Assembly: GCA_021018995.1 (NCBI GenBank)
Contig: CM037597.1
Coordinates: forward strand, 34,722,936-34,786,935
Direction: 5' to 3'
Source of the DNA: Chloranthus sessilifolius
Lineage: Eukaryota > Streptophyta > Magnoliopsida > Chloranthales > Chloranthaceae
Length of the DNA stretch: 64,000 nt
A program made the translations under genes and the position numbers. A model generated the notes under the pieces. It saw only the letters and a list, made by a program, of their open reading frames with translations. It ran no database searches and was not told the DNA's origin. Shown here in pieces: positions 8,424-58,064 of this stretch; position 1 is the first letter of the stretch; every line of letters begins with the position of its first letter.

Positions 8424-8571
8424 AAGTGCCTGGCGCAACTATTAGTTGCGTCAGGCCACTAGGGGCCTCAAAATAGCCTCGCACAACTAATAGTTGCGCC
8501 AAGCAAGAGGTGGGCACAATTTTGCCTGGCGCAACTATTAGTTGCCCCAGGTTTGGCTGGGGGAATTTAAA
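8424..8571 (+). promoter_or_regulatory. Putative promoter of element A aORF1: three palindromes plus TTTAAA
   Basis: Three palindromes of the element-A family lie at about 8430-8458, 8474-8504 and 8524-8551. GAATTTAAACAG (TTTAAA at 8566-8571) begins 14 bp after the last one. Element B has the same layout before its aORF1, with a different palindrome and TTTTAAAA 15 bp away. Promoter function is inferred from this parallel. Confidence 0.55.
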
Positions 8572-10088
8572 CAGCCCGAGTTCGGGCTGGGGGTTTTATT
8601 TCAAAATTTTCTCCCCCTCCTTCCTCTTTGAAATTGAAAACCGCCCCCCCCCCCCCCCCCCCCCTCCTAGGGTTCCTTTACATTGCCTCTATGCATGTCC
8701 CATTGCCGTTTCTTTGCTTGTGTGGATCGTTCGTCAGCTCACGCTAGATTAAAGACCCTTTTTCTCTCTAAACGTAATCATTAAAACTCATTTTCTTTTA
8801 TTTTTCTTGCTTTTTCTTGTAGATATGATCATGATCTTGTATTCTTTGATGAGTAATTGTTTATTTTTATGGTGTGTATGTTTATTGATGAAGTGTGGAT
8901 GATTCTTTATGAACAATGCCCTATTTTGTTATTTCATGGATTTATTGGTACCTAATATATATATTTTTTATTGTTTTTATTTGTGTATATTGAATGATTC
9001 TTTTTTTGTTGCTTTTTGTTTGTGTTTTTTTTGTTTTTATTTTGCATATAAAGCAATGGATTTTGGGTTATTTTTTTGTGAACACTAATTTAGGGAAAAA
9101 AAGATTTTTTATTAAAAAAAGAAATGATTTTTGCTTTCTATATTTTTTTTGAAAGTTAAGGAGAATGATGAAGATTTTTTTTTGTCTATATAAATTTTTT
9201 GAAAACCGATTAAGGAAAAGGCTTTTTTTTGTTTTGTTTTTGTTTTGTTTTCTTTGTTCTAAGGAATTGGTTTTTTAATTTTTATTTTTAGTTATTTAAA
9301 AAGGGGCCTGGCTTCTTCTGGCTTCTTTTTGCACATAAGAGGAAGAGATTGTTTTTTTTTGGGTTTGTTTTAAGGAATAGAAAGAAATATATTTTTTTGT
9401 TTCTTCTCTTTTTTTTTTTTTTTAAACATAAGGACTTTTTCTCTGTTTTTTTGTTGTTTTATAAAAGAAACACCTAAAACAAGACTTCTCTCTCTCTCTC
9501 TCTTTTTTGTTTTGTTTTTATTAAATTAAAGCAAAGGATTTTTTTTTGTTTTTGTTTTTATTAAGATAAAGCAAAGGATTTTTTTTACGATATTTTTGTA
9601 AGTAAAGTAAAGGATTTTTTTTTTTTTTGTTTTTTTATTAAAATAAAGCAAGGGATTTTTTTATGATTTTTTTGTAAGTAAAGTAAAGGATTTTTTTGTT
9701 TTTGTTTTTTTATTAAAATAAAGCAAGGGATTTTTTAATGATTTTTTTGTAAGTAAAGTAAAGGATTTTTTTATTTTTCTAAGTGTAAAAGAAAGGTTTT
9801 TTTTCTTTTTTAGAAACATAAAAGAATGATTTTATTTGATTCTAACTTGCTTTATTTTCAAAGACGGGGAAACTTTATTCATTATCATTTTCTGAAGAAA
9901 AGATTTTTTTGCATTTTCAACCTAAAAGGGATTTCTTTTTTTTGTTTAGGCATGTGTATTTCTTATTTCTGAAAATATGTAAAAAGAAAGGGGAAGGGTG
10001 AGCATACTTACCTCCCTTTTGCAGCATAAAATATCATGGCTCTTTATCATTGATCTGCTCTGACATGATTGCTTTTTGTTGCCCTAGA
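8572..10088 (+). other. T-rich leader/5' intron region of aORF1
   Basis: It begins with a GC-rich inverted repeat (cagcccgagttcgggctg) and a run of about 20 C at 8643. From 8750 it is strongly T-rich on the plus strand. Between about 9525 and 9780 a degenerate tandem repeat (AAGTAAAGGATTTTTTT and AAAGCAAGGGATTTTTT) alternates. A T-rich 5' intron spliced to the exon carrying the ATG at 10089 is plausible; TTTTTCTTGTAG at about 8810-8821 is a possible acceptor. Confidence 0.4.
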
Positions 10089-12540
10089 ATGTCGGGTGAG
10101 GGTGAGCATATTCCTGAGGAGGGCCACGAGGAGGGGCCCGAGATTGTATACGGCCCGCGAGGGGAACAGTTCATTTGGGTAGAGCGGAGAGCGGGCCCAT
10201 GGCTTGAGATACAAGGCGAGGCTGCTTGAGTCGGCCTCCTTCACCAACAACATACCCACATTTCCAATTTCGGGATAGCGGGCAAGGTAAAAGAGAGGTT
10301 CAATTCATTTTCATTATGTAGTTTTTGCTTTGCCCTTGTGATCTGATGAGCATTTTCTTGGGTGCAGGACCTGCCCAACATTGTATTCTGTGGCGGGTGG
10401 CTCGACTTCCATGAGTTCTACCTCTACGTCCCTCCCGTAGTAAAGGTCCTTCTGGCACAGGTGGGCTTCGGAGAATTTCTGTCTTGTCCCGCCATGAGGG
10501 CCAACGCTACCTATTTGAAAGCCCAAATTGAACGGTTTCACCCTGAGACGATGACCTTTCACATGGCATATGCAGAGATGACTTTGGCACCCGTTGACTG
10601 GGCCATGATTACCGGCATCAGGATAGGGGGGATACCGATATCCGATCTCGCGGTGCCAAGTCGAGAGGACATCACTCGATTGATTGAGGCCTATCCTCCT
10701 CGCGGGCAGACACATGGCACCGAGGTCAAGATGTCTTGGTTGACCTCACTTTATACACCTAATGAGTTAGTGGATCTGGGTCAGCCAGACAGGATGCTCT
10801 ACATCACGCCCGAGCGGGCGATCATCCTAGCCCACATTACTCTCTAGGTCCTTCTTAGTAAGACCCTTTTCACCAATGCGAGCGGTGGCCGAGTCAGCCT
10901 AGCCCTGCTGAGTGTGATGGACAATTGGGGTGACGTCCACAGGTATGATTGGGGAGGGGCAGGGTATGCATGGCTGATGTACAATTTGTCTCGGGTCATG
11001 ACTGGGGATTCAAAGTCTGCTATTGGATTTTGGGCCGCCCTGGAGGTAATTCCTCATTCCTTTGCCTTTGCCATTTTTTTTGAATGATCCATATATGCTA
11101 CTGACCCGCTCTTGTGCAATCTCCCCCCTTTTCAGGTATGGGGATACCATCACTTTCACCCTGGGCGCCAACTTCTTTTCTCGGAGTTGCTTACCTATCC
11201 CCTCCTCAGCAACTGGAATCAGACCCGATGCCGTGATGTAGGTTTAAAGCACTTGGAGATGGGTCTGAGGTCCCAACTCGACTTGATGGTTCCTGAGCAG
11301 GTAAAACTCTCTTTCAACTTTATTTGTTTTTTTAGCTCGGGAATCTCCCTTTACTGATGTGCTAACTACTGGGATTCTCTCTCTTTTTTTTTCTTTTGAC
11401 TTGGGCAGATCCTCCCTGACCCGTACCTTGCATCACCCTTCTGGGACCGAGCAGCTGTAGGCGCTTCCCGCCTATTTAACAATCACCGCGTCGTTTTCTT
11501 CTATGGAGCATGCGCTAAATTCTATTATCTGGGGGAGCGAGTCGTGCACCAATTTCAGGGTTATTATGCCATACCTGTGGACCCTCCGGTGGATGTTTGG
11601 TATCCCGTTGGCAGTATCGAAGAGCTTACCACGACCTTCTTCAACAGTGGGCTTCCCATCCATGCTCTCCATGTGCCCAGGGACTACCATCTTTGGTACG
11701 AGTGCCTGCCGTACTAGTTTATCTTGCCGCGCTTTGTACCTAGCACCAATTTTCTTGCGTTCGGCGGCCCTCTCGGCTAGGTAATTCTTCTTAGCTTGGA
11801 TTAGTTCCCTTTATGCTTTAGTTCGGCCCTTCATTCCTTCTAAGCGGATCTTTATTTTGTTCATAGTTTACTCCAGGGGATGATTCAGATGGTGAAGGCA
11901 GACGGTGAGATATGTCGGGAATATCCTCCGATGTCGCCCTCTCGTGTGGGTCCTTGAGCAGGGCCTCGGTGCTGGGTCCGTCAGGTACCTCTCATGGTGG
12001 TATCCCTGGTGGCGATCCACCCATGGTCTATGGGACCTTCTGGCACCTGGATGACAGCTTCCATTCGGGCCTCTGTGCGGACGTGGATCGACAAGTGTGG
12101 CTTTCTGCTGAGGCGGCCCATGTCCCTCCTCCTGAGGTGGTTCCAGGGGTAAGTCTGCTTACAGCCCAATCTCTTTCCGCTTTAGCCTCCTATTATACAT
12201 GCTTTAAGATTGCCCTGATAATTGATGTTATATTATTCTGAACGTAGGATTTCAACTCGGCCATGGAATATGCGGAGTACCATCATCATCTTGCAGAGCT
12301 TAGGGAAGTGGAGACGGTGAGTACCCTGCTGCCCTACTCCTCTCATTCATTTCATTATCATTTGTCCCTTAACTGATCCTTACTCTTGACTTTGACTGTG
12401 CCTTGTAGCGTGCTCGTGCTAAGGAGTCGCGTTCTTTATTCAGTAGGATCTCGCAGGCGTGGTCCAGGGTGGGGGACATTCGGACCTTCCAGAGATCCTC
12501 TCGTCGTCGAAAGAAATCAAAGGGCGCGAGCAAGGAATAG
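10089..12540 (+). pseudogene. Element A aORF1: seven-exon plant-mobile-domain-like gene, nonsense-mutated
   Basis: Exons: 10089-10286, 10368-11045, 11136-11300, 11409-11780, 11867-12148, 12248-12316 and 12409-12540, all with GT..AG introns and phase 0, about 632 codons. Exon 2 holds the best domain match: ETMTFHMAYAEMTLAPVDW followed by MITGIRIGG, like the H-x-F-H/GEMT-x-T-L-E-D/GLPVDG signature of the plant mobile domain (aminotransferase-like family). Exon 5 starts acidic (GDDSDGE). The C-terminus is a basic RRRKKSKG, a likely nuclear signal. In-frame stops fall at 10227 (apparently CGA to TGA), 10845, 11715, 11778 (CAG in element B) and 11906; no frameshift is needed. It is antisense to gag-pol. 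PMD proteins act in transcription and transposon silencing; the role here is unknown. Confidence 0.72.
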
Positions 12541-12884
12541 GCTTTTAGTTTTTGTTTTGAAAACTCAGTACTCTTTGGAATTCGATTTGTTTAATTATTT
12601 TGGGGATGGTTGATGTGATACTTTGGATCATTTTTTGGAAAATATTTTTAGAATTTTTGCATTGATTTTATGCCACGATCTCCTTGTATTGGACCTGTTT
12701 CTCTGCAAGATGTGTTTGCCCAAAATGTTCTCGTAAGTTTAATTCTTGGGTGTATGCTTTGATGTAGATCAACTCATATGAATAAACAAAATAATTGCCA
12801 AACTGTTAGTGAAAGGAGGTGTGAAAGACAAAGGGTGTAAGTCCCCACAAATGGGTCCTGACGTTGAAGAGGGGGGTCGAGTGG
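12541..12884. other. Spacer after aORF1 in element A
   Basis: A/T-rich DNA follows the aORF1 stop, presumably its 3' UTR. No gene is visible. Confidence 0.4.
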
Positions 12885-13065
12885 CGAACTATTAGTTGCG
12901 CCAAAGTTGAAATCCTGTAAAATATATTAGCTAGAACTATTAGCGCGCATAAATGGGGACCAAAATGTCAGGTGTAACTAATAGTTGTTCCGTGCTCAAC
13001 TGGGGAGAAAACACCGCACAACTAATACGCCTGTTTAACCTGGGGAGCAGTGGGTCCTTATATAC
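12885..13065 (+). promoter_or_regulatory. Putative promoter of element A aORF2: three palindromes plus TATA box
   Basis: Palindromes lie at about 12885-12905, 12968-12995 and 13014-13032; the last is degenerate. CCTTATATACCC at 13056-13067 gives a TATA box starting 26 bp after the last palindrome and about 140 bp before the ATG at 13200. Element B has the same 26-bp gap and a TTATAA at the same distance from its aORF2. Function is inferred from this match. Confidence 0.6.
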
Positions 13066-13199: not shown

Positions 13200-14697
13200 A
13201 TGGACCCACTTTCTAACCCTCTTTTACGTGGAGGGCTTGGAGCCAATTTACCCCCTTCCTTGGGCCTGGGGCCCAAATTTCTAACAGCCTGGTTTGAGAG
13301 CATGAATGAGAGTGAGCTCGCCGACTTGGAGTGCCTTAGGCTATCTCGCCTTCCTTCCTTTCTAGAGGTTCCTCCACGGTGGGAACTCCTTTTCGCTACC
13401 GCTTCATTTTGGGATGTGAATTCCCATATATTCCATTTTGGGAAGCGGGAGCTAACCCCAACCCTTGAGGACCTATCCAATCTGTCTGACTTGAAGCTTC
13501 ACAGGGGCCTTGCAAGAGTCATGCCTCGGCCGGGCTACTCCAAATCCATCCACCTTACTCTCGATTTGATGAAACTTGAGTATGAGAAAAGTCTCATCGG
13601 GGGGCCCACAAGGTGTTTGCTAAAATTCGTCAAAGAACTTTTCGGTGATGAAAGTCTCCGAAAATTTTTTATTAGGAATATTTTAAACGTGAAAGCTCTA
13701 GCACTCGGGCTCATTTATGAAATCCTCTTCTTTACTAGGGGAGAGCTTCTCATTGGCAATTTGCGATGTTTTAACAGAGCTGGAGGTGGGCCGATCCATG
13801 ATGCATTTGGTGCTCGCCGAGCTGTATCGAGGCCTTGATTCATTTACTTTGGGCAAGGTGGAGGGCCTTCAGGGGTGCCCCTTGTTGCTTCAGGTCTGGT
13901 TGGATGAGCACCTCACTGTCTTGGGTCCTGTGCTCCGCTTTTATATTGCTCGAGGTGAGGTGGTTCAGTGCTTTCTGGGTAGATGTCACTTGCTTCCACA
14001 GGGCGATGTGTCAGCTCTTAAACTTTGGTTGACCGATGCTAAGCCGACATGGAGGCTTCTTTGGTTGGACCGGACATTCCCAGTAGTTCGTTCTAGAGAC
14101 CATGAGGGCATCACCCTCCTAGGTTTGACTGGCAGCACCTTCTACTTCCCATTCCGAGTATTGAGCTAATTCGGCTCCCCTCAGCACGTGCCTTGTGAGA
14201 CCAAACCCCCTCTATGTGATTTGATCTTTTCTAGGGGGTCCACTGGAGACATAGATCGGATTGCTACTCTTTGGGAGACGCATCAGTCGATGCTGATGTG
14301 TGATATTGGGTAGGGAGATTTGGTTAGAACTCCTCCTGAGTATGAGGCCTGGCTATTGACTGAGTGGCCTGTTGCTGATGGTCCAAATTCAGCAAAGATC
14401 GTTGATACTGGAGGCCCCTGGCCAAAGAAGGAGACGACACTCTGAGCCCATATCAAGCTACTTGCGGACGAGAAGAGGGTCCTGCAAGAACTTTTGGCAC
14501 ATGAAAAGGTTAGAGCAGAAATAGGAGAGAGAGAGGTCCTCCGTTTGAAGGGATCATTGAGCGTTGCTTTCGGAGTCGCCGACTCTTCTCGGAAGAGGTA
14601 TAAGAGCCTTCATGGTCACTGGCTGACTGAGTGGAATGTCCGGGAAGATGACCTTCATGCTGAGATTAGTGCATTGAAGCACGAGCTGGGCCGCTAA
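13200..14697 (+). pseudogene. Element A aORF2: second plant-mobile-domain-like gene, frameshifted
   Basis: The start MDPLSNPLL is chosen because element B's copy starts MDPLPDLN at the matching place. The N-terminal half has an IFHFGKRELTPTLEDLSNL motif, a plant-mobile-domain-like H-x-F-x-x-G/L-T-P-T-L-E-D signature, then GGPTRC and LFGDESLRK. A frameshift near 13740-13770 moves the frame to a second segment (MMHLVLAELYRGLD ... GITLLGLTGSTFYFP), which ends in TAA at 14167. Homology continues past this and further stops to a charged, coiled-coil-like C-terminus ending at 14697. No intron is evident. It follows aORF1 on the same strand, with its own promoter-like region, and is antisense to pol. 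Function is unknown. Confidence 0.65.
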
Positions 14698-16100
14698 CTC
14701 CTTGCACAAGTAACTTTTTTTGCACAAATCAGATACACAGAAAAGGGGCATAAAAATCCCATTATAGATACACACATTTTTGGTATACATATTTTCTTCA
14801 TGTTTTTGCTATTTTTTGTTTATTTGTAAAAAGGAAAGCATGCTAGTCATCATACCGGCTATTTTTTGGGATGTGGTGTAAGCCGTGTATTTTGTAAATG
14901 AAAGGTAGTTTATTATATACATAGACTTTTTGGTCTTTTTATTTTGTGCATATATATATATATATATTGTGTGGTGCCTTAATCACCTTGTGAAATCCTA
15001 GGTCCTCTTTTGAGCATGGTCGAATGCCTCTTTGACTGGTTGATTCTGAAAGAGTTTCAACAGTCTTACCAAGGCCGGAATGTCCATCCCCTTGGGTCGA
15101 GTCAAACCTTTCTCCTTACCTTGAGTCATACATTTGACAAAGCAATTTCATGAAAACAATTCTGGTCAGGACTCGATTCGAACTCACATGAGCGGCCCCG
15201 TCAGTCAAGAGGGTACAGGAAGAGTAACCAAGAGGGATCCTTAAACATTTAATTAATCATTCCAAACCCCTCTTCTCTTTCCTTTTTCTTTTCTTTCTTC
15301 TCTCTTTTTTTTTTTCATTTATCTCTTATTTTACCCGTGGCACCCTTTTGGGTTTTCACCACGTCCATGGGTTTAGCTCTCTTACCCCAAGAGTCCTTTT
15401 GGGTTTTCACCTGGTCTGCACAAACTCATTGTTTTTACCCATAGTGCCCTTTCGGGTTTTCACCACGTCCATCTTGCTTTGAGCTTGTATTTTTATTTTA
15501 TTTTTTTCTTTCTTTTTTTTATTTTTTCATTTCTTTTTTTCACAGCCACGACATAGACGTCGATTCCATCATAGCCGGCTAGATGGGGTTCTGGTGTCGT
15601 CTCACAACTCAGCTTGTGTTGACTTAACAGATGCTATGCTTGCTTGTGAACCTACGAAGAGGGCTTCCTTCAGGGTGTAGCTTGGCCATGGGATAGGTTA
15701 GGATTTGAAGGTATGCTGGGCTAAAAAGGTTTCCTTGACATGGCTTCAGTTTTCTCAATATACTTGGGGATCTTACTGTACATGCCCCATAATTTTTTGT
15801 TCTTTTCATTTTGTTTCAGGCAATCTCTTTTTGAGGTTTTGCTTTTCTGATTTTTTTAGATTTTGATAGTAACTTTACTTCATCTCCTTTTTTCTTTTTC
15901 TCTCTTTTTTGTATGCACACACACCTTTTTTGGGAAAGGGGTTTATCCGAAAGAAAGGCCCAAGCTCAAATGGGGTAGCAAAGGATATCATCATTTTTAG
16001 GGATACTTTTTGGCTACTATGCATGGAACAATGGCCTCTTTTGGGTGGTTCTTAAACAGTTACGTATCTATTTCACCAATACTTACCTTATCACGATAGA
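14698..16100. other. Spacer between the convergent aORF2 and pol of element A
   Basis: It contains T-rich and (TA)n tracts (about 14950-14968) and the conserved GGGTTTTCACC repeats described separately. Several short stretches match element B between 50240 and 52340 (for example 'ccatggccaagctacaccc' in one orientation or the other). The region is non-coding in both elements. Confidence 0.55.
15330..15480. repeat. Conserved ~50-bp repeats (GGGTTTTCACCACGTCCAT) downstream of pol, element A
   Basis: There are three clear units built of TTTTACCC(G/A)(T/A)..GCCCTTTTGGGTTTTCACC(A/T)(C/G)GTC. Element B carries four matching units in inverse orientation at 50925-51125, so the relation to pol is the same. 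The region is non-coding on both strands in both elements. Confidence 0.75.
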
Positions 16101-17240
16101 CTAAGAGTAGAACCGTCGGACGTATCCAGCATTGATGGGCTTAGGAAGGTGATCTCCGTCCATGGTGGCGAGGCGGATGGCGTACCTCGATAGTACTTCT
16201 CAGACGACGTAAGGCCCTTCCCAGTTCGGCTTGAACTTCCCTCTCGGATCGGCGTGGTGGGATTGGAAGATCTTATTCAGTATAGTGTCTCCTACCTTCG
16301 AATCTTGACCGCAGACACGTTTATTGTAAGTGCGTGCGATTCGCCCTTGGTAAACTTGAGTATGACACAAGGCTAGGAGTCTCTTCTCGTCCAATAAGTT
16401 TAATTGCTCGAAGTGGGATCTCTCTCTCTCTCTGCTTCGGGTAAGCCTAATTCCATAAGGATTCAGAGTGAGGGTACTTTAACCTCTATTGGTAGGGCAG
16501 CCTCAGTTCCATACACGAGGGAGAATGGTATTGCCCCCGTAGCGGTACGGATTGACGTTCTGTAGGCTCACAAAGTAAATAGCAACATTTTGCTCCAATC
16601 TCGATATGTGAGATCATTTTCTCAAGGATGCGGATGACTATTTTGTTTGCAGTTTCTACGGCTCCATTAGTTTGAGGTCGATAAGGTGACGAGCGATGAT
16701 GCTTGATTTTATATTGCTCACAGTAGGCTTGGATGCGCTTATTCACAAAATTGGTGCCATTGTCCGTGATGATGTCATTGGGTACTCCAAATCGGCACAC
16801 AATATTATTCTTGAGAAACTTCTCGACATGACTGGCTGTGATGTTGGCATATGACGCCGCTTCTACCCATTTGGTGAAGTATTCAATGGCGACGAGGATG
16901 AATCGATGCCCGTTTGATGCTTTTGGGCTAATCATTCCAATGACGTCAAGGCCCCAGGTAGCAAATGGCCAAGGAGTGGTCATGCAGTGTTGATCGATGG
17001 AAGGAGAATGTATCAGACTGAAGTGTTCCTGACACTTGTAGCATTTCTGAACATGTTTACAGCAATCCGATTCCATAGTGGTCCAAAAGTATCCCTACCG
17101 CAGAATTTTCTTAGCAAGCATGTGACCGCTAACGTGGGCTCTGCATACTCCCTCATGGATCTTGTTCATGATACTGGTTGCTTCACTTTTTCTAAGGCAC
17201 TTGGGCAAGATGTTATTGTATGATCGCTTGTAAAGGCACT
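16101..17240 (-). pseudogene. Integrase of element A (degenerate)
   Basis: The zinc-binding HHCC end (…CYKCQEH) precedes a catalytic core in which the D-D-E residues are visible: WGLDVIGMI, ITDNGTNF and PQTNGAVETANK. The frame runs 17076-16486 on the minus strand and then breaks. The C-terminal part resumes at 16394-16200 (RGKFKPNWEGPYVV) and ends near 16101 (RRFYS, stop). Element B's intact 355-residue copy shows the full length. The enzyme inserts the cDNA into the genome; this copy cannot make it. Confidence 0.88.
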
Positions 17241-17532
17241 CCTCGTAAACAACGTAGCCTGCTGCTAGACGTTGAATGGTTCACCGATCCGTCTTGGATG
17301 TACCCTCAGGGAAAGTTTGCATCTCGAGAAAATTCTTGATATCTGAGAACCAAGGTGGCTCATCATCAGGCTTTGTAGGTTCCTCAATCTGGAGGCAGAA
17401 GGCTGGCTCACTTCTCTGCTCGATCATGATTGGCTTCATCTCAGCACCATATGGGATTTCTATCATTGATGCCAACGTCTCTAGTGCGTCGGCAAAACGA
17501 TTCCTTATCCGGGGGACATATGAGAATATCAC

Positions 17533-17931
17533 GTCTTGGAAGCAAGCTATCAGATCCTCAAGGTGTTAAGGATAAGGGATCAGTTTCTCATCTTTCATCT
17601 TCCAGTCACCATTCGTCTGGCATATGATTAACTGTGAATCACCAAGCACTCAAAGGTGAGTTATATTTAGATCAAGAGCCGCCTGCAGGCCAGCGACACA
17701 AGCTTCATATTCAGCCATGTTGTTTGTGTAAGGAAAATTGAGCTTAATAGAGACCGGTACATGGGATCCTTTCGGAGAAATCAGAATGGCGCCAACTCCC
17801 TGACCTTCGATATTTACGGCCCTGTCAAAGTGCATTACCCACGATTCCTCTGCTTCCTTAGTATCATCTTCCGTCATGAAAAGGATGTCCTCATCAGAGA
17901 ACTTGGTTCTTAAAGGTTCATAATTTGGCAA
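17533..17931 (-). pseudogene. Archaeal-type second RNase H of element A (degenerate)
   Basis: The frame 17931-17650 has WVMHFDRAVNIEGQGVGAIL (catalytic Asp in HFD), NNMAEYEACVAGLQAAL (Glu in EYE) and continues toward a GDSQL motif (second Asp) before breaking near 17560. The tether continues in a separate frame at 17532-17281. An additional RNase H between the usual RNase H and integrase marks the Tat lineage. Element B has the same domain at 48463 onward with G in place of the R of HFDR. Confidence 0.8.
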
Positions 17932-19479: not shown

Positions 19480-19833
19480 ACTCGTAACACCTACCTCTTC
19501 TTGTATTTCTACAGGGAAGGGGTTGATTTCATGTGGGACGGGTATTTCGATTAAGGCATCTTTTTGTGAGACTTTTTCTGGAATTTTAAATGACCATGTT
19601 TTTGGACTTGGTATTTTTTCAATGTTTTTGGGATTTGGTATTTTTGCAATGTTTTTGGGATATGATGTTTTTGCAATGTTTTTGAGATTTTGATTTTCTT
19701 TGGAGATGGACCCTTGGCGAGGCGGGTTGCTGTATATACAAGGTATTGCCTGCCAAGGGCTTATCTCACTTTTTATAGGTTATTTTTTTTTTAAATAGAT
19801 GCCAAACTTTAGGCCACTCCCTGCTTCTAGAGT

Positions 19834-33992: not shown

Positions 33993-34000
33993 CCCAATAC

Positions 34001-48370: not shown

Positions 48371-48399
48371 AAGGGTAGGCGCTCGCCGATCATCTTGCT

Positions 48400-49059
48400 G
48401 AGAACCCTCTGACTGACTACGATCCTCTAAGGACTGAATTCCCTGATGAGGACATCCTGTTCGTGACAGAAGATGATATAGAAGAAGCAGAAGAATCATG
48501 GGTAAAGCACTTTGACGGAGCATCACATGTCAAAGGCCAAGGAGTTGGCACCATCCTAATTTCACCAAAAGGATCCCATGTACCGATCTCTATCAAGCTC
48601 AACTTCCCCTGCACTAATAATATGGTTGAGTATGAAGCTTGCGTTGCCGGTCTACAGGCAGCTCTCGATCTGAATGTAACTCACCTTCGAGTTTTTGGTG
48701 ATTCATAGTTAATTATATGTCAGACGAATGGTGACTGGAAGACGAAAGACGAGAAACGGATCCCCTATCATGAATACCTCGAGGATCTAATAGCTTGCTT
48801 CCAAGATGTGACTTTCTCATACGTCCCCCGGATAAGGAATCGCTTTGCCGACACATTAGCAACTTTGGCGTCAATGATTGAAATCCCCTATGGTGTTGAG
48901 ATGAAGCCGATCATGATCGAGCAGAGGAATGAGCTGGCCTTCTGCCTCCAGATTGAGGAACCTACAAAGCCTGATGATGAGCCACCTTGGTTCTCAAATA
49001 TCAAGAATTTCCTTGAGACCCTAACTTTCCCAGAGGGTACATCCAAGACAGACCGATGA
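48400..49059 (+). pseudogene. Archaeal-type second RNase H and tether of element B
   Basis: KHFDGASHVKGQGVGTILIS, NNMVEYEACVAGLQAALD and LRVFGDS give the three acidic catalytic positions. A TAG at about 48708 follows FGDS. The frame then continues (48808-49059: FSYVPRIRNRFADTLATLAS) into the linker to integrase and ends at a TGA where element A's homologous linker frame also breaks (17281). Confidence 0.82.
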
Positions 49060-50238
49060 ACCATTCAACGTTTAGCGGCAGGTTACGTCATTTGCGCAGA
49101 ATGCCTCTATAAGCGATCATACAATAACATCTTACTCAGGTGCCTCACTGAAACTGAAGCAGTCAGTATTATGAAAGAAATTCATGAGGGGGTATGCGGA
49201 GCCCACGCCAGCGGTCACATACTCGCTAAGAAAATCCTACGACAGGGATACTTTTGGACCACCATGGAATCGAATTGTTACAAACATGTTCAAAAATGCT
49301 ACAAGTGTCAAGAACACTCTAGCCTGATACACGCTCCTGCCATTGATCTTCACTGCATGGCCACTCCTTGGCCATTTGCTACCTGGGGCCTTGACGTTGT
49401 CGGAATGATTAATCTGAAAGCATCAAATGGACATCGGTTCATCCTCGTCGCCATTGAATACTTCACCAAGTGGGTAGAAGCGGCATCCTATGCCAATATC
49501 ACGGCCATTCACGTTGAGAAGATTCTCAAGAATAATATTGTGTGCCGATTTGGAGTACCCAAAGATATCATAACAGACAATGACACAAACTTTGCGAATA
49601 AGCGCATCCGAGACTTATGCGAGCAATACAAGATCAAACATCATCGCTCCTCCCCTTATAGGCCTCAAACTAATGGAGCCGTGGAGGCGGCCAACAAAAC
49701 TCTAATCCACATCCTGGAGAAAATGGTCGTCACTTATCGAGATTGGAGCGAGCAGTTACCCTTCGCGCTTTGGGCCTACAGAACATCGATCTGTACCACT
49801 ACAGGGGCAACACAATTCTCCCTTGTGTATGGAACCGAGGCCGTCCTCCCGGTGGAGGTTGAAGTACCCTCGCTCCAAATCCTCATGGAATCAGGCTTAC
49901 CCAAAGCAAAGAGAGAGAGATCCCACTTTGAACAATTAAACTTATTAGACCAGAAGAGACTCCTAGCCTTACGTCACACTCAAGTTTACCAAGGGAGAAT
50001 TGCACGCACTTTCAATAAATGTGTCCGCGATCGAGATCTAAAGGTAGGAGACATTGTATTGAAGAAGATCTTCCCTTCCCTCCATGCCGATCTAAGAGGA
50101 AAATTTAACCCAAACTGGGAAGGACCTTACGTCATTCGAGAGGTGCTACCGGGATATGTCATCCGCTTCGCCACCATGGACGGAGATCATCTCCCTGAGC
50201 CCATCAACGCTAGATACATCCGACGGTTCTACTCATAG
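49060..50238 (+). CDS. Integrase of element B (frame intact from 49171)
   Basis: The 355-residue open frame from 49171 contains the HHCC zinc-binding module (H-E-G-V-C-G-A-H-A-S-G-H ... CYKCQEH), the catalytic core with D (WGLDVVGMI), D (ITDNDTNF) and E (PQTNGAVEAANK), and a C-terminal domain (RGKFNPNWEGPYVIREVLPG) ending RRFYS at the stop. It is the only pol domain in the window without an internal stop. In the TDN motif the usual G is D (DNDTN), a possible weakening. As part of a broken polyprotein it is unlikely to be made. Confidence 0.9.
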   Translation, partial: TIQRLAAGYVICAECLYKRSYNNILLRCLTETEAVSIMKEIHEGVCGAHASGHILAKKILRQGYFWTTMESNCYKHVQKCYKCQEHSSLIHAPAIDLHCMATPWPFATWGLDVVGMINLKASNGHRFILVAIEYFTKWVEAASYANITAIHVEKILKNNIVCRFGVPKDIITDNDTNFANKRIRDLCEQYKIKHHRSSPYRPQTNGAVEAANKTLIHILEKMVVTYRDWSEQLPFALWAYRTSICTTTGATQFSLVYGTEAVLPVEVEVPSLQILMESGLPKAKRERSHFEQLNLLDQKRLLALRHTQVYQGRIARTFNKCVRDRDLKVGDIVLKKIFPSLHADLRGKFNPNWEGPYVIREVLPGYVIRFATMDGDHLPEPINARYIRRFYS

Positions 50239-50924
50239 TCTATCATGATAAGGTAAGTATTGATGAAACAGATACGTGACTGCTTAAGAATCATCCAAAA
50301 GAGGCCATCGTTCCAAGCACAGTAGCCCAAAAGCATCCCTAAAAAAGATGATATCCTTTGTTACCCCATTTGAGCCTGGGCCTTTCCTTCAATAAACCCT
50401 TTCCCCCCCAAAAAAATATACGTGTACATATACCAAAAAAGAGAGAGGAAAGATACATGAGTATAGAGTTACTATCAAATCCAAAAGAAAAAAAAAAAAG
50501 AAGAAAGAGAGAAGAGAAAAACCTCAAAAAGTGATTGTCTTAAATGAAAAAAAGGAAAACAGAGAGAAGAATAACAAAAAATGTGCATGTAGAAGAATCA
50601 TGGGGCATGTACAGTAGAAACCCCCAAGGAAGAAAGCATCTTGTGAAAACTAAAGCCATATTAAGGAAACCCTTTTAACCCAGCATAACTTCAAATCCTA
50701 ACCCTACCCATGGCCAAGCTACACCCCGAAGGAAGCCCTCTTTGTAGGTTTGCAAGTAGTCATATTATCTGATAGGTCAATATGAGCCGAGTCGTGAGAC
50801 GAAACCAGAACCCCATTCAGTCGATTATGATGGAATCTTTGTCCATGTCGTGGCTTTCTGGTTCTAAAAAAAAAGAGAGAAAAGAAAAAAAAAAGAGAAA
50901 GAAAATCAAATTGAGTTCAAAGCA

Positions 50925-51125
50925 AAATGGACGTGGTGAAAACCCACAAGGGCACCGCGGGTAAAAACAACGAACTCACGCGGACTAGGTGAAAACCCGA
51001 AAAGGCACTTGGGGTAAGAGAGCGGACCCATGGACGTAGTGAAAACCTGAAAGGGCGCTACGGGTAAAAACAGGGATGACAGGTATGGCGAAAACCCATC
51101 TTGGGCGCTATGAGCAAAAATATCA
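50925..51125. repeat. Conserved ~50-bp repeats (GTGAAAACCC...GGGTAAAAAC), element B
   Basis: Four units: GACGTGGTGAAAACCCACAA, then GGGCACCGCGGGTAAAAAC, and so on, with 45-60 bp period. Homologous to 15330-15480 of element A. Confidence 0.78.
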
Positions 51126-51990: not shown

Positions 51991-52357
51991 TGGAAGAAAA
52001 TTCGAACACCAAAAAAAATATGTATATGTGTATATAGCAGATTTCATTTCTTTTCTTACAAGCATCACGTATGAAGTGTCACATCCCAAAAAGATAACAA
52101 CATGACACACTTTCTACTTTCTACCTTTTGTACAAGTATAAAACAAACAAAAAAAAGAAACAACCCAAAAAAGGAAGGAGATCTCTGTTAAGGGGCATCG
52201 GCCCCCCTCTATGCATATGATCTATGGTATATGCAGGAACATGTCAAGGGCAGGAACCACGCTTCAAAGCACTGATCTCTGCAAGAAGAGAGTCCTCACG
52301 GGCATTTCGATCAGTCAATCACCTACCATGAAGACTCTTCTGTCACCTCCGCGAAAT

Positions 52358-53760
52358 GTCAGTTGCACTGGGAGACTCAGTCAAAAGCCCAGTTAACCGA
52401 AGAACCTCACTCTCGGCCGTAGCAGCTCTCACCTCCGCCATCTCGGCTCTGGCCCTCTCCTTCCCCAAAGCCTCAGTCAAAGCCAGCTTCTTTATAGAAA
52501 GAGACTCAATCCTAGTCCAGAGCATCGTTTCTTTGTATGGCCAGGATCCCGTCTCTATCACATCTACCGAAACCAGGTTAGGGACAGGTAAGCACTCAGA
52601 TGCCAGCCAAACCTCGTAATCATAAGAGAAGATGCCCTCCTGAACCAAGCTACACATATGCGCCGATTGGCGGATCTCCCAGAAGGCTGCTATGCGATCT
52701 ATGTCACTGAGAGAACCCCGAGAGAATATCAGAGAGCACAAGGGCGGTATCACAGTGCACGACACGTGTTGGGTATATCCGAATTGACGGAGCACCCGAG
52801 ATGGGAAATAGTAGGTGCTACCGGTCAACCCCAGAAGCGTGATACCCTCAAAATCCCGAGAGCGGACAATCGGAAAGGTGCCATCCAGCCAGGGAAGTTG
52901 CCAGATCAACTCTGCATCAGATAGCCACAAGCTTAGTTCCTCGATGCTCCCATGGGGCAGCCTCGAGCAGCAGGTTAGAAAGCCCCGAGCCACATCCCCT
53001 CTTACCAAGCAAAATCTCGGCACAGGCCCCATGATAGCCAAATGCTCTCCTAGCCAAATCTGAATGAGGAGTGGACTCCCACGAAGAATCTCAACCCGGC
53101 CTGAGGCCGAGGCATCCAGGCCCCGATACATCTCAGCCAAGACTAGGTGTACCAGTGAACGACCTCCCTCCAATTCGGTCAAGACATTGCATTACTTGAG
53201 GGAAAATTTCTCGCCCCAGTAAAGAAGAGAACTTCCAATAACAAATAACGGGCAAAGGCATTCACATTGAAAGGATCTCGGATAGGCAGCTTTCGGAGAC
53301 TCGAGTCGCCAAAAAGTTCTCTCAGGAATTTCACCGAGCATCTAGTGGGCCCGCCGGCGAAGCCCTTCTCATACCCGCCTTTTTTCAAACCAAGAATCGC
53401 GTAGACCGCCTTTGCCTACCCCAGTTTGGGCACCACTTTGGCAAGTCCCCAATGCATCCTCAAGCCAGTGATAGAGGCTAGCTCCTCCAAGGTTGGGGTG
53501 AGCTCCTTGGACCCGAATCTGAAGACATGAGCCCTATGGTCCCATGACGCCAAGGCCGCCTGTAGGAGGTCGGGCAATAAAGGGACAGCAAGGAGAGAGG
53601 AGAGGTGGGATAACCCAAGGCGATCCAGAATAGCGAGCTCGCCCTCAGCCAAGCTAGCGCACCACTTTTGCAAAAAACTGGGCCTCGAGTCCAAACAAGG
53701 AAGTACACTAACCCCATCCCCCGTATGAGAATTTAGGTCGGGAAGCGGGTCCATAGACAT
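52358..53760 (-). pseudogene. Element B aORF2: plant-mobile-domain-like gene, broken
   Basis: The start is MDPLPDLN at 53754 (or MSMDP at 53760), aligned to element A's aORF2. Exon-like frame 53892-53416: HVFRFGSKELTPTLEELASI is the plant-mobile-domain-like signature. Then GGYEKGFAGGPTRC and LFGDSSLRKLPIRDPFNVN (53388-53179), and 53182-52343: SLVHLVLAEMYRGLD, GITLLGLTGSTYYFPSRVL, and an Ala/Glu-rich helical region (ALGKERARAEMAEVRAATAE), probably coiled coil. A stop near 53416 and a frame change near 53185 break it. It is convergent with pol, with its own TATA and palindrome array upstream. Confidence 0.68.
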
Positions 53761-53909
53761 ACAAAGATGTTCGATATAAAGCTCAGTCAATGTAGGGCGA
53801 TGGACCCGCTTGTCAATGAAACAAGGGAAGAAAGAGAAAAGAAAGAAAAAGGAGGGGCAAAAAGGCAAGGCCCTGGGTGAATAGTGAGGCAAGGAGGGCT
53901 GGGCGTGGA

Positions 53910-54110
53910 TTATAAGGAACCCGTCAAGCCCAGTTATACGGGGCGTGTATATTATATACGCCAGAGCAAAAACTGAACAAATTATGGTTGGCGTATATAT
54001 TATATACGCCCAGGTAAAAACTGAGCATTTTCTGCTAGGCGTATATATTATATACGCCCAAGCAAATTTTCAAAACTTTTACCCGGCGTATGTAATATAT
54101 GCGCCCACTT
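53910..54110 (-). promoter_or_regulatory. Putative promoter of element B aORF2: four palindromes plus TATA
   Basis: Palindromes lie at 53941-53962, about 53990-54015, 54036-54062 and 54081-54110 (GCGTATATATTATATACGC type). The minus-strand TTATAA at 53915-53910 lies 26 bp after the nearest one and about 155 bp before the ATG. Element A shows the same arrangement with its own palindrome. Confidence 0.62.
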
Positions 54111-54514
54111 GAAAAAGTAGGGTCGCGTGGCTTCCCTCACATCGGGCCATCCATTTTTTATTTCATATTGTTTCCTTCCCAAAGGGAGGGATGGGTTTCG
54201 CTTAGCCTACTTTTTCTCCCGGGGCAGCCCGCAGTCGGACACGCTCACGCACCCATGGGAAACCCTCAGATGATGTGGTATCTGTGGGTCATATGCGGGT
54301 AATCACACACGAGCTCAACCCCATCATTGGAGGGGCTCTGGCCCGCTTCATGCCAAGAAAAATACCATAAAGGCAGAGAGATAAACAAACGGAGCATTCA
54401 TATAAACCATAAAAGTCATAAAACCATCCAAAAAAATCAAAAGATAATTATTACATATTCCACAATATTTCAAAATCTAAACTGTTTCACTGTTTCCAAT
54501 TTAAAGAAAATGAA

Positions 54515-56835
54515 CTAATCCTGGGCAGCCCCCTTTGACTTCTTCCGGCGTCGGGTCGCGCTTTGAAAGGTACGGGTCTCCCCCACTCGAGTCCCCGCCT
54601 AAGAGATGCGGCCAAGCAGAGAGCGCGACTCCTTTTCACGAGCACGCTGCATAAGCACACGAAGGGCCATCAGTTAGGAAAACAAGCAGAAAGTAAATAT
54701 GAAGATAACTAGATACGGTTAATATTCACTCACCACCTCAACCTCCCTATGACCGACAATGTTGCGGTAATATTCGGCTTGGTTTATGGCCGACTCATAA
54801 TCCTGCAGTAAAAAGATAAAGAGAGAGGTATCAATCACACAGGCTATCGGCATGATCCAAGAAAACGGAAGAGCATGGTAACAAGGGAGAGATTACCCCA
54901 GGGATCAGCTCAGGGGGCGAAACCCGAATAGCTTCAGTGGATATGCGTGCCTTCTCAGCCACAACGGCACACATACGCGACAGAAAGGCATCATCCAAGC
55001 GCTTAAAAGTCCCTTGGACCTCAGTTGGCGAACTGCCAGAAGCGCCAGCATTGGAAGGGTCAGAAGGTCCAGCACCGGTAGCCTCATCAGGAACAGCTGT
55101 CTCATCCCCCTCATCTAAATCGTCATCCTGTCCAAACTATAGGGAGAAACAATCTTTGTTCAAATAGCAGGGCAATTAAGGTAATCATATGGAAGGTTGC
55201 TAATAGAAAGAGGAAAGAACATTACCTGAGATCGCGGACCACCAAAAGCCAAAAAGTTGGTGTCGGGCATGAATCGGGGCAGCAGAGAACGATAGGGCAG
55301 AGACTCATACCACATCTGATATCCCCCAGGAAAGAGAAGGTCATCAATGGGGACCCCGTGGTGGAGAAAGCGAGCAGTAAGCACTTCAGTAGAACCTTCG
55401 GGAGCCAATACATCAGCTGGAGGAGCTTGGGGCACAGCAGAAAGAGGTCGATACTGATGAACCACCCTCTCTCCTAAGTAATAGGCCCTAGCCCTGGACC
55501 CATAGAAGAAAATAATGCGTCGATCTAACAAAAGGTGAGAAGGGCCCACTACAGCCAGGTTCTAGAAGGGGGATCCGACGTAGGGATCAAGGATGACCTG
55601 CTCAACAAAAAGGAGGAGAGATTTATACATTTGGTCAGAACCCACATCCTATAAGAGCTATCAAATTTGGGAAGAGAGAAATTGTTATACCTGCTCAGGG
55701 ACCAGCAGATCAAACTGAGAGCGCAGCCCTAACTCCAAGTGCTTCATACCCACGTCCCGACGGCAGTTTGCGTGCCAATTGCTCATAAGGGGGAACGTAG
55801 GAACTTCCGAGAGAAGCAGAGGGCGACCAGGTTGGAAATGCCTCAGATAAAAATAGATATGCGAAAAAAAAAGGGGGGACGAATTGAGACCAAAGGATAA
55901 AATACCTCAAGTGCGGGCCAGAAGCCCACAACGGAGCTGAAGTTCCCAAGAACGGCTCGCACCAGGCTAGACATGAGCACCGCATAACCAGCACCTCCCC
56001 AATCAAACTGATGTACAGTGTCCCAATTCACCATAAGACTGAGAAGGGACAATGAGACCCGCCCTCCGGTAGTATTTGAAAGGAGAGTCTTGCCAAGGAG
56101 GAACAATAGAGAAATACGGGCCAGCATCAGTGCACACTCTGGCTCGAGATAGATGGCCGCATCAGGTTGGCCCAGATCCACTAACTCATGAGGCTCGAAC
56201 AAGCCAACTAGCCAGGATAGCTTGACTTCAGAACCGTGAGTGTTCCCGGAGGTTGGGTAGGCCCCTATCAGCCGACTCACCTCCTCCCTATCAGGGGTGC
56301 GGGCAAGTATCACTGGCACCCGTCCAATACGATCCCCAGTAATCATGGACCAGTCCGCGGGTGTGAGGGTCATCTCAGCCATGGCCATGTGAAACGTCAT
56401 GGTCTCAAGGCGGAAGTGCTCTATCAGGGCCTTCAGATAGGCCGTGTCAGCCCTCACAGCGGGGCAGGAGATGAAATCCCCAAAACCAGCTTAGGCAAGC
56501 AGGTCCTTCACCACCTAGGGGAGATAAAGTACGAGGCGCTGGAGGTTGAACCAACCACCCCAGAACATAATGTGTGGCAAAGGCTGCAAACAAAAGGCAT
56601 CGGTCAAATAGGAGCAAAGTGGTATAATGAAGGCATCAAAGGAAAAGAAAAAGGGCTCATCTGTTTACCTGGCCAGAGATCCCAAAGTTGGAAATATGGG
56701 TATGCTGACAATGAAGGAGGCCAGTACGGGCGGCTTCAACTTGCATTTCATACCAAGGTTGGGAGGAGCGTTGTGAAACAATGAACTGCTCCCCATGAGG
56801 ACCATAGGCCATCTCCGCCTTGATCCGCAGGACAT
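54515..56835 (-). pseudogene. Element B aORF1 (copy 1): seven-exon plant-mobile-domain-like gene, broken
   Basis: Exons on the minus strand: 56835-56669 (31 bp shorter than A, frameshifted), 56583-55906, about 55855-55691 (acceptor unclear), 55597-55226, 55136-54897, 54802-54734 and 54646-54515. Exons 2, 4, 6 and 7 have exactly the lengths of element A's (678, 372, 69, 132). Exon 2 has ETMTFHMAMAEMTLTPADW and ALMLARISLLFLLGK; exon 4 has FYGSRARAYYLGERVVHQY; exon 5 is acidic (QDDDLDEGDE); the end is basic (RRRKKSKG). Stops: two in exon 2 where copy 2 has Gln, one in exon 4 where copy 2 has Trp, and one in exon 7. Antisense to pol. Confidence 0.75.
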
Positions 56836-57316
56836 CTGAAAATATGGAACACATCGGTATAAGAAAGGGCTGCTAAAAAAAAAAAGGAGAATAACAAAAA
56901 AATGCACTAATCCATAAAAAAAAATGAATGAAGAATGAATGGTGATGAATAATGAGGAAAATGAAAAAAAAGAGGGGAGCATAGGCCTAAGGAATCACAT
57001 ATACCTGAAAAGAAAAAAGGAAGAACATCAAGCATTTCAAACAAAAAAAAAACGAGAGAATGAGAAAAGTAACAAAAAAATGCAAAAAAAAAATCATATA
57101 TGTGCACTAATCCATCATAAAAAATAAAAAAAAACAAACAAAAACAACAAACAAATAAGAATAAAGATGTTGAACGGTGATGATATATAATAATAATATG
57201 ATGAATGATGAATGATGGTATAATAGAAAAGGGGAAAAAGGATGATGATGAATGAAAAAAAAAAAAAAAAAAAGAGAAAAGGAAAGAGAAGGGCATGAGC
57301 ACAAGGAATCACATAT

Positions 57317-58064
57317 ACTTGAAAAAAAAAATATGCATCAATTTGTCACCACAAAAAGGAGGAACATCAAGCATTATCAAAATTCAAAAAGGAGATGAAA
57401 GAGGGGTTGATGATTACCTTCAAGGGGAGAAGAAATAGATCCAAAAATCGGCAGAGGATGAACGTTTCTGATCCACAAATACGAACCCCGGAGATAGAAC
57501 TCAAGCAAAATCAAATGCCAAAACCCTAAGGGGCTATCCCGGACTTGAGAAAGAAGGAGGGAAGAAGATAGAGTTTGAAAGAGGGGGTCCCTTTTGTGCT
57601 CGAGCTCCGGTAGTTTTAAAACTGCCAATTTTGGTTGGGCGTATATAATATATATGCTCGGCCAGGGCTCGGGCAGTTTTAAAACTGCCAATTTTGGTCA
57701 GGCGTATATAATATATACGCCCGGCCATTTTTTGCTACAGATTTGTCAGGCGTATATAATATATACGCCTGACCAAAATTGGCAGTTTTAAAACTGCCCG
57801 GCCATTTTTTGGCTTTGAGATCCGACGGATTCCCCCCTGTATGCTATGGACCAAGGCCCGGTCCCTCTTACAAGTCTACGTACCATCAAGCGATGGTGTG
57901 CGCATCCCCAAATGGCCCCTCGAGCTCCCTTCGATTAGCCCAAAGGGACCATGCTACAATAAGCGGATCTAAATCTGTAAGCGCTCACCAAGTGCTCCCA
58001 TAAAATCATAAAATCATGAAAAAAAAATTTGCATAAAAAAAAGAAAAAAAAGATTCACATAAAA
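57317..58064. other. Upstream region of aORF1 copy 1, element B
   Basis: It contains the palindrome/TTTTAAAA promoter-like block at 57614-57775 and A-rich DNA. 57800-58000 is non-coding and resembles the region upstream of element A's palindromes (gagggaccgggc type words on the minus strand). Confidence 0.45.
57614..57775 (-). promoter_or_regulatory. Putative promoter of element B aORF1: three palindromes plus TTTTAAAA
   Basis: Palindromes lie at 57637-57661, about 57699-57726 and 57746-57775. TTTTAAAA at 57621-57614 lies 15 bp from the nearest; in element A the gap is 14 bp. The segment GGCAGTTTTAAAACTGCC, itself palindromic, recurs between and after them (near 57671 and 57781). Confidence 0.58.

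What the first reader, a model, noticed from the sequence alone, without database searches (positions are those of the whole stretch)
8424..57775. Two giant retrotransposons carry unrelated palindromes at the same four positions, at matching distances from TATA-like boxes
Seen: element A (minus) has three or four copies of a GCAACTATTAGTTGC palindrome at each of four sites: LTR, upstream of gag (25412-25585), upstream of aORF2 (12885-13032) and upstream of aORF1 (8430-8551). Element B (plus) has three or four copies of a GCGTATATAATATATACGC palindrome at the same four sites (38575-38792, 40617-40788, 53941-54110, 57637-57775). The gap from the nearest palindrome to the TATA-like box is 281 versus 279 bp in the LTRs, 26 versus 26 bp at aORF2, and 14 versus 15 bp at aORF1. 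The sequence changed wholesale and together at all sites while the layout was kept. Inference: these are upstream activating or anti-silencing sites for each transcription unit, read by a dimeric DNA-binding protein, with rapid motif turnover to escape host control or to separate families. It recalls the self-specific motif arrays bound by VANC anti-silencing proteins in VANDAL DNA transposons, here in retrotransposons.
Basis: partly seen in the sequence, partly recalled or inferred. Interest (0 to 1): 0.92.

Follow-up and report, generated by a model that had tools for sequence, protein, structure and literature searches.

The report
Shared palindrome switches in giant retrotransposons
Two families of giant plant jumping genes carry, beside several of their own gene starts, rows of one short mirror-image DNA motif whose middle letters differ between the families, which looks like a private control code that each family may read for itself.

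Summary
The window (C14 of an unnamed 2.17-Gb plant genome) holds two collinear Ogre/Tat-type Ty3-gypsy elements, A (minus) and B (plus). Both antisense genes are plant mobile domain (PMD) genes that show purifying selection.

The arrays recur in sampled genome copies. The A 15-mer occurs 21,369 times genome-wide and the B 19-mer 9,776 times, reversed-pattern controls 0.

Three corrections. The palindromes are not unrelated: both are a 23-bp GGCG-NNNN-TA-W-TA-NNNN-CGCC frame (29,462 places with a YANN core, control 0), differing mainly at half-site positions 6, 8 and 9 (CAAC versus TATA). Some A-like arrays mix cores, so change looks stepwise. The TATA link holds at the LTR and aORF2, not at gag, nor at aORF1 in B.

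Best explanation: sites for a dimeric sequence-specific regulator serving the element's transcription units, quite possibly a PMD protein, which would make a retrotransposon counterpart of VANC/VANDAL. Binding is untested and the DUF1985 link weak. Sireviruses carry comparable arrays, so this is a new variant of a known kind.

The parts
3640..6808 (-). Element A 3' LTR, split by a nested solo LTR (3738-6063); U5 end not found
   Evidence: Repeat pairs with the 5' LTR; alignment to B LTR start TGTAGACACCC; TSD ATAGG around the insert
6178..6382 (.). A LTR array, 4 palindromes, centres 6189, 6286, 6334, 6371
8431..8549 (.). A aORF1 array, 3 palindromes, centres 8442, 8490, 8538 (48-bp spacing)
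8564..8572 (+). TTTAAA box 14 bp after the A aORF1 array
   Evidence: TTTAAA present in the 5 A copies read
10128..12589 (+). A aORF1, antisense to gag-pol; PMD, broken frames
   Evidence: PMD match 10350-10844 E 5e-8, 32.9 bits, just under the cut-off 34.9; Ka/Ks 0.13-0.18 against B where not saturated
12881..13036 (.). A aORF2 array: palindromes at 12892 and 12981, decayed ones near 12937-12952 and 13025
13058..13065 (+). TATA box TTATATAC of A aORF2
13200..14679 (+). A aORF2, antisense to gag-pol; sub-threshold PMD/DUF7745 matches; ATGGACCC start shared with B
15376..21313 (-). A pol region (RT, RNase H, second RNase H RVT_3, integrase)
22163..23207 (-). A gag-like region
   Evidence: tblastx against B
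25416..25580 (.). A gag-leader array, 4 palindromes, centres 25427, 25475, 25522, 25569
26378..27630 (-). A 5' LTR with an internal deletion; one intact palindrome (27401) and a fragment (27500); ends approximate, no PBS recognised
27096..27107 (-). LTR TATA box CTATAAATAGAG, 282 bp from the palindrome edge
38188..39800 (+). Element B 5' LTR (1,613 bp); 94.0% identical to a 3' LTR that begins about 4.8 kb beyond the window end
38573..38790 (.). B LTR array, 4 palindromes, centres 38584, 38631, 38678, 38779
39070..39081 (+). LTR TATA box CTATAAATAGAG, 279 bp after the array
39802..39819 (+). Primer binding site TGGCGACTCTGCTGGGGA (tRNA-Arg assignment recalled)
40621..40784 (.). B gag-leader array, 4 palindromes, centres 40632, 40679, 40726, 40773
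42915..43982 (+). B gag
   Evidence: Retrotrans_gag E 2e-15
45075..51023 (+). B pol region with G-patch, RNase H, second RNase H (RVT_3), integrase
52262..53754 (-). B aORF2, antisense to gag-pol; PMD match 33.2 bits, just under the cut-off 34.9; ATGGACCC start at 53754
53907..53916 (-). TATA box CTTATAATCC of B aORF2
53941..54106 (.). B aORF2 array, 4 palindromes, centres 53952, 54000, 54048, 54095
54466..56815 (-). B aORF1, antisense to gag-pol; PMD E 3e-17 (63 bits)
57604..57806 (.). B aORF1 array: palindromes at 57648, 57711, 57759, interleaved with a second palindrome GGCAGTTTTAAAACTGCC
58061..59868 (-). Duplicate of the B aORF1 segment (92.5% identical); two B-type palindromes at window-frame positions 66769 and 66817, beyond the window, look like its array

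Best explanation
Each array is a cluster of binding sites for a dimeric, sequence-specific DNA-binding regulator that serves the transcription units of the element: the genomic RNA promoter in the LTR, the gag leader, and the promoters of two antisense PMD genes. One half-site is (T)GGCG-NNNN-TA and two face each other across an unread A/T. The frame GGCG...TA-W-TA...CGCC is shared between families, while half-site positions 6, 8 and 9 hold family specificity (CAAC in A, TATA in B). Shown: the arrays, their positions, the shared frame, their recurrence, and purifying selection on both PMD genes. Inferred: dimeric reading (from symmetry) and regulation. My split: DNA-binding regulatory sites about 0.75; element-encoded PMD reader about 0.4; anti-silencing in particular about 0.3.
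For: Palindromes far above chance in the window; genome-wide 10,620+10,749 A 15-mers, 4,939+4,837 B 19-mers and 29,462 frame places with a YANN core, controls 0 each. Arrays next to PMD, gag and pol matches in A-type stretches and arrays with the same spacing in 20 of 20 B-type stretches picked by the core word, at least two palindromes in 19. No mixing of A and B cores: 0 of 86 and 0 of 65 array palindromes. Half-site profiles of A and B agree at 7 of 11 inner positions (column-permutation p 0.0028) and 15 of 20 (p 1e-5, the floor of that test). The promoter-proximal LTR palindrome keeps its flanks (CTGTACAT before, AGTAAC after) in A and B, so its core changed in place. Among 27 A-type arrays, half-site positions 7-11 differ by 0.00-0.05 per pair against 0.233 in flanks; positions 1 and 3, outside the search word, by 0.057 and 0.09; the centre W varies freely (0.25). 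Both antisense genes pass the PMD cut-off in some copies; aORF Ka/Ks is 0.13-0.33 in the 5 of 7 comparisons not saturated, and in 7 of 7 the antisense frame has the lowest pN/pS of the six frames.
Against: No binding, expression, TSS or methylation data. Loci were found by exact core words, which lowers apparent divergence at positions 5-11. Position 2 (0.239), CpG positions 4 and 5 (0.21, 0.24) are as variable as flanks, position 6 is intermediate (0.12), and the outer arms beyond 23 bp are not constrained among A copies (0.233). The gag array has no conserved TATA and the aORF1 box is not conserved in B, so 'one array per promoter' is shown only for the LTR and aORF2; in the 6 B aORF2 copies a further TATAA starts 2 bp after the array, so which box is used is open. 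Two of nine A-type places (C1:2.72 and 30.3 Mb) run from LTR to LTR with no PMD match and no array between integrase and the 3' LTR; that fits joint loss of genes and arrays but is not proof. In one search the opposite-strand frame in the same codon register also gives low ratios (pN/pS 0.38-0.59 against 0.29-0.52), mostly with more stops, so the case for the antisense frame is by degree. The PMD-DUF1985 link is one match of 16 bits against a cut-off of 35 (1 of 3 aORF1 PMD pieces of the window; 0 of 6 PMD-matching pieces from genome copies, 3 of them aORF1). No correlation of core type with PMD clade could be tested. Structure prediction failed (pLDDT 34.6).
Confidence: 0.62

Rival explanations
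1. The arrays are binding sites for a host transcription factor (activator), borrowed by the elements; the two cores recruit different members of one host factor family.
For: Symmetric sites upstream of a TATA box are a usual form of activator sites; Sirevirus repeats were matched mainly to stress-factor sites (PMC2829016, passage).
Against: The sampled arrays of an element share one core type and A and B cores never mix, which is easier with one private reader; no known plant site was tested here.
Confidence: 0.25
2. The palindromes act as RNA hairpins in the genomic RNA (packaging, dimerisation or small-RNA source), not as DNA sites.
For: The internal arrays and the 3' U3 array would be part of the genomic RNA, and each unit can form a stem with a TAWTA loop (inference).
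Against: Imperfect arm pairs show no clear bias to G-U on the gag-pol strand: A 7 sense, 5 antisense, 12 other of 130 pairs; B 10, 6, 1 of 150 (small numbers). The arrays lie upstream of TATA boxes in the LTR and at aORF2.
Confidence: 0.05
3. The arrays are sites where the host silences the elements, or insulator or recombination sites; they persist because they limit damage, not because the element needs them.
For: They contain CpG sites that decay mostly by transitions, as methylated DNA does; tandem repeats are known silencing targets (PMC5735166, passage); Arabidopsis PMD proteins MAIN and MAIL1 help silence TEs (PMC7156037, passages).
Against: A site used only against the element should be lost; instead the core is constrained and retained in two diverged families. 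Placement near the LTR and aORF2 TATA boxes fits promotion better.
Confidence: 0.1
4. Neutral tandem-repeat by-products: palindromes multiply by slippage and are homogenised, without function.
For: Tandem 47-48 bp units; within B the arrays partly resemble each other (72-81% by blastn).
Against: Separate sites keep the same palindrome while spacers and flanks diverge; the frame is shared between families whose aORF synonymous sites have Ks above 1 or saturated; R-first cores are near the control level (6 places, control 2), so the core is limited.
Confidence: 0.06

Closest known systems
VANDAL DNA transposons and their VANC anti-silencing proteins (Arabidopsis; PMC5735166, passages; PMC10398659, abstract and outline)
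   Same: [quoted passage not shown] the element carries candidate regulator genes; weak domain hint (DUF1985).
   Different: Here LTR retrotransposons; palindromic 23-bp sites with mostly 47-48 bp spacing and a conserved frame; genes are PMD, antisense to gag-pol; no evidence yet for binding or loss of methylation.
Sirevirus (Ty1/copia) palindromic repeated motifs (PMC2829016, abstract and passages)
   Same: Arrays of palindromes in the LTR upstream of a conserved TATA box, and additional boxes upstream of an extra gene (ENV) in some elements; motif differs between families.
   Different: Copia, CGG-CCG core, CpG-island setting, TATA soon after the array; here the LTR array is about 280 bp upstream of the TATA box, the frame is GGCG...TAWTA...CGCC, and arrays also lie before two antisense genes.
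Ogre/Tat Ty3-gypsy elements with PMD extra ORFs (PMC6317226, PMC9289625, passages)
   Same: Second RNase H between RNase H and integrase, PMD in an extra ORF, G-patch; a tRNA-Arg-type PBS in B.
   Different: The passages I read do not mention palindrome arrays, or two antisense PMD genes with arrays of their own.
Retand elements with antisense ORFs between pol and the 3' LTR (PMC11963269, abstract and passages), and Grande, whose accessory gene has its own promoter (title in that paper's reference list)
   Same: [quoted passage not shown] tandem repeats.
   Different: Retand genes mostly carry Transposase_28, not PMD; in the passages read no palindromic operator arrays are described.

Membership tests
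Ogre/Tat Ty3-gypsy | Ty3-gypsy order RT - RNase H - second RNase H - integrase | tested here: met
   RVT_1, RT_RNaseH, RVT_3, rve in that order in A; RT_RNaseH, RVT_3, rve in B; the B piece for RT was not scanned (in error)
Ogre/Tat Ty3-gypsy | PBS complementary to tRNA-Arg | tested here: inconclusive
   TGGCGACTCTGCTGGGGA at 39802 in B, assignment to tRNA-Arg recalled; none recognised in A
Ogre/Tat Ty3-gypsy | Plant mobile domain in an extra ORF (57% of Ogre elements in PMC6317226) | tested here: met
   Above the Pfam cut-off for B aORF1 and for aORF1 and aORF2 in genome copies
Ogre/Tat Ty3-gypsy | RT phylogeny; intron between PROT and RT | not tested
   no reference elements were available
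[quoted passage not shown]
VANC/VANDAL anti-silencing system | Encodes a DUF1985/DUF287 protein | tested here: inconclusive
   One sub-threshold DUF1985 match (16.1 bits, cut-off 35.1), no DUF287
VANC/VANDAL anti-silencing system | Mutator-like DNA transposon | tested here: not met
   LTRs, gag and pol
VANC/VANDAL anti-silencing system | Protein binds the motif and removes DNA methylation | not testable with these tools
   no binding or methylation data
Sirevirus palindromic motifs | Ty1/copia element | tested here: not met
   Integrase follows RNase H
Sirevirus palindromic motifs | CGG-CCG core signature | tested here: not met
   Frame is GGCG...CGCC with a TAWTA centre
Retand | Transposase_28 (PF04195) antisense ORF | tested here: not met
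   No such match at E up to 1 in the aORF pieces scanned

The most novel reading that the evidence does not exclude
Ogre retrotransposons carry a private trans-acting system: their antisense PMD proteins bind, as dimers, family-specific palindromes placed at the transcription units of the element and keep those units open against host silencing. A and B are two specificities of one system that drifted apart at three half-site positions through intermediate cores still visible in the genome (CATC, CATG, CAAG). PMD, a domain of unknown function, would then be a DNA-reading domain, a retrotransposon counterpart of VANC, and host PMD silencing factors such as MAIN and MAIL1 would be domesticated versions of it.
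Probability: 0.33. Interest if true: 0.9.

Novelty: new variant of a known kind. Interest (0 to 1): 0.74.

Why it matters
Sequence-specific anti-silencing by a plant mobile element is known from VANDAL DNA transposons (PMC5735166). If Ogre retrotransposons run a similar private code, it would bear on how an abundant part of plant genomes is controlled, give the plant mobile domain a testable molecular function, and offer thousands of natural sites with a fixed frame and a variable core for reading out protein-DNA coevolution.

Tried and rejected
Unrelated palindromes: rejected. Wholesale simultaneous change: weakened by mixed-core arrays. CAAG as a third family: 119 places, of which the 50 or so listed lie scattered, and in the two arrays read that hold it it is mixed with other cores, so it is probably not a separate family. 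R-first cores: 6 places, control 2. Cores with C, G or T at the second letter were not counted, because that search did not complete. RNA hairpins: no clear G-U bias. Relatives in other collections: none from two protein searches, PDB, viral or prokaryote contigs. Structure prediction of an aORF1 piece: unusable. The first constraint estimate is biased by choosing loci through an exact word; one search separates positions outside that word. A de novo scan of 332 kb of fetched DNA and window for other palindrome pairs gave, apart from A and B types and AT-rich repeats, only the two window cases listed in passing. Waiting scripts (part of 99) computed nothing else.
Full report
WHAT IS THERE. The window lies on C14 of an unnamed 2.17-Gb genome. 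It holds two collinear Ty3-gypsy elements: A on the minus strand and B on the plus strand. Gag, RNase H, a second RNase H (RVT_3) and integrase were found in that order in B, and RT, RNase H, RVT_3 and integrase in A; B also has a G-patch. B has a PBS at 39802. Its 5' LTR (38188-39800) is matched by a 3' LTR beyond the window at window-frame position about 68,826, 94.0% identical over 1,613 bp and carrying four B-type palindromes with the same 47/47/101 spacing. Between pol and the 3' LTR both elements carry two genes antisense to gag-pol. Both are plant mobile domain (PMD) genes: in the window B aORF1 reaches E 3e-17 and the other pieces fall at or under the cut-off; in other genome copies both aORF1 and aORF2 pass it. 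A and B differ greatly (Ks above 1 or saturated in the seven aORF comparisons). Both aORFs show Ka/Ks of 0.13-0.33 in the five comparisons not saturated and pN/pS of 0.29-0.52 in all seven, the lowest of the six frames each time; the opposite-strand frame in the same register comes next (0.38-0.59), mostly with more stops. I read them as protein-coding genes that were under purifying selection.

THE PALINDROMES. Centres are mostly 47-48 bp apart. In sampled copies the spacings up to 150 bp were: A, 42 of 61 intervals 47-48 bp, 7 at 37-38, 9 at 96-99, 3 other; B, 36 of 46 intervals 47-48 bp, 5 at 100, 5 other. Many values lie near half-integral helical turns (3.5, 4.5, 9.5 at 10.5 bp), which would put neighbouring sites on opposite faces; that is an inference and much of the regularity is inherited.

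ONE FRAME, TWO CORES. Aligned on their centres they are TGGCG-CAAC-TA-W-TA-GTTG-CGCCA (A) and NGGCG-TATA-TA-W-TA-TATA-CGCCN (B). Half-site profiles (26 A, 30 B half-sites) agree at 7 of 11 inner positions (column permutation p 0.0028) and at 15 of 20 with outer arms (p 1e-5). The outer arms, however, are not constrained among A copies, so the safe claim is the 23-bp frame. Genome-wide the frame with a YANN core occurs at 29,462 places, control 0, whereas the same frame with a purine-first core occurs at 6 places, control 2; YC, YG and YT cores were not counted. The frame was scored without regard to the core in 20 A-type stretches (200 kb) and 20 B-type stretches (28.7 kb): 86 of 86 array palindromes of A carry an A-like core (at least 3 of 4 letters) on at least one arm and none a B core, and 0 of 65 in B carries an A core; 8 single palindromes in A stretches (4 A-core, 4 other) and 1 in B were left out. 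The stretches had been chosen by their core words. The promoter-proximal LTR palindrome keeps flanking CTGTACAT and AGTAAC in both elements, so this site was probably present in the common ancestor and its core changed in place. Five further short A-like stretches, chosen because a search listed an unusual core there, each mix CAAC-like arms with CATC, CATG, CAAG or other arms, in three of the five with the same unusual core on both arms. The positions that vary there, 8 and 9 and in part 6, are those that separate A from B. The switch therefore looks stepwise, not wholesale.

POSITION. Nine A-type places were read on C1. In five, PMD matches lie with aORF-side arrays (the fullest, at 63.81-63.84 Mb, has LTR, aORF1, aORF2, gag and LTR arrays with pol between); two end before the aORF side; two run LTR to LTR with LTR and gag-side arrays but neither PMD matches nor arrays between integrase and the 3' LTR, as if genes and arrays were lost together. 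The LTR array lies 280-282 bp before CTATAAATAGAG in 11 of 12 A-type arrays that had the box, and 257-278 bp in 6 of 7 B-type ones (the seventh 371). At aORF2 a TATA-like box starts about 18-26 bp after the array in 11 copies; in the 6 B copies another TATAA starts 2 bp after it. ATGGACCC begins 161-186 bp after the array in the 7 copies with an exact match in the aORF direction. At aORF1 the TTTAAA box is in the 5 A copies read, but 4 of 4 other B loci lack it (3 of them have a second palindrome there). Gag arrays have no conserved TATA. The claim 'one array per promoter' therefore stands for the LTR and aORF2 and is open for gag and aORF1.

CONSTRAINT AND SYMMETRY. Among 27 A-type arrays aligned by site (12 LTR, 6 gag, 4 aORF2, 5 aORF1), flanks differ by 0.233 per pair, half-site positions 7-11 by 0.00-0.05, and positions 1 and 3, which were not in the search word, by 0.057 and 0.09. 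Position 6 is intermediate (0.12); position 2 (0.239), CpG positions 4 and 5 (0.21, 0.24) and the centre W (0.25) are not constrained. Positions 1-3 together fall below flanks at each site type, least at gag (0.159 against 0.199). Changes at positions 2, 4 and 5 are mostly transitions, as expected of methylated DNA. Most departures from the core sit on one arm (90 of 95 in A, 56 of 59 in B), as decay after insertion would give. Mismatched arm pairs show no clear preference for G-U on the gag-pol strand, which speaks against an RNA structure.

HOW IT MAY WORK. A symmetric site with an unread A/T centre, repeated beside an LTR and an antisense-gene promoter and of the family's own core type, is best read as a cluster of sites for a dimeric DNA-binding regulator. 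For the PMD protein speak its presence as two conserved genes in the same elements, and the parallel with VANC, a transposon-encoded protein that binds family-specific motif arrays and carries DUF1985 (PMC5735166, passages read). One aORF1 piece has a sub-threshold DUF1985 match (E 0.011); the other PMD pieces of window and genome have none. Arabidopsis PMD proteins act in TE silencing and gene expression and a promoter motif was found for part of their targets, with binding not shown (PMC7156037, passages).

COMPARISON. Sireviruses have palindromic arrays upstream of a TATA box and, in some, upstream of ENV (PMC2829016, abstract and passages). Retand elements have antisense genes, mostly Transposase_28, thought to be regulatory (PMC11963269, abstract and passages). 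PMD extra ORFs in Ogre are known (PMC6317226, PMC9289625, passages). In nine searches of the held open-access library (several lists were capped, and most papers were seen as listings only) I saw none that describes palindromic arrays at the transcription units of Ogre elements; most subscription papers are not in that library. The cis-architecture is therefore, as far as I could see, a new variant of a known kind.

LIMITS. Sampled copies came from capped lists on chromosome C1 and were chosen by exact core words. No RT or PMD tree, no census of families, no transcript, methylation or binding data. The PMD protein search of the genome did not complete.

Noticed in passing
window 3738-6063: A 2.3-kb solo LTR (TG...CA ends, TSD ATAGG) sits in A's 3' LTR; it has its own repeated palindrome TTCGCGAGGATCCTCGCGA (near 5569 and 5636), so another retrotransposon family may use palindromic repeats too.
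   Followed up: partly
window 16612-18330 against 48010-49728: Synonymous divergence between A and B in this pol stretch (pS 0.40) is lower than in the aORF pieces (0.61-0.84), two gag pieces (0.82) and a neighbouring RT piece (0.65); it may mark an old exchange of pol between families.
   Followed up: no
window 57604-57806: In B a second palindrome GGCAGTT...AACTGCC is interleaved with the main one at aORF1; a version of it is in 3 of 4 other B copies read.
   Followed up: partly
window 55509-57329 and 58061-59868: B's aORF1 segment is duplicated (92.5% identical); B-type palindromes at window-frame 66769 and 66817, beyond other sequence, look like the array of the second copy.
   Followed up: partly
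window 51417-51974: A 62-bp tandem repeat (about 9 copies, 90% matches) between pol and aORF2 of B, in a gap of the A-B alignment.
   Followed up: no
L014, position C1:68466533: A single palindrome with core CGAC on both arms, 2.2 kb from a gag array (the LTR distance): a symmetric double change in an A-type element.
   Followed up: no
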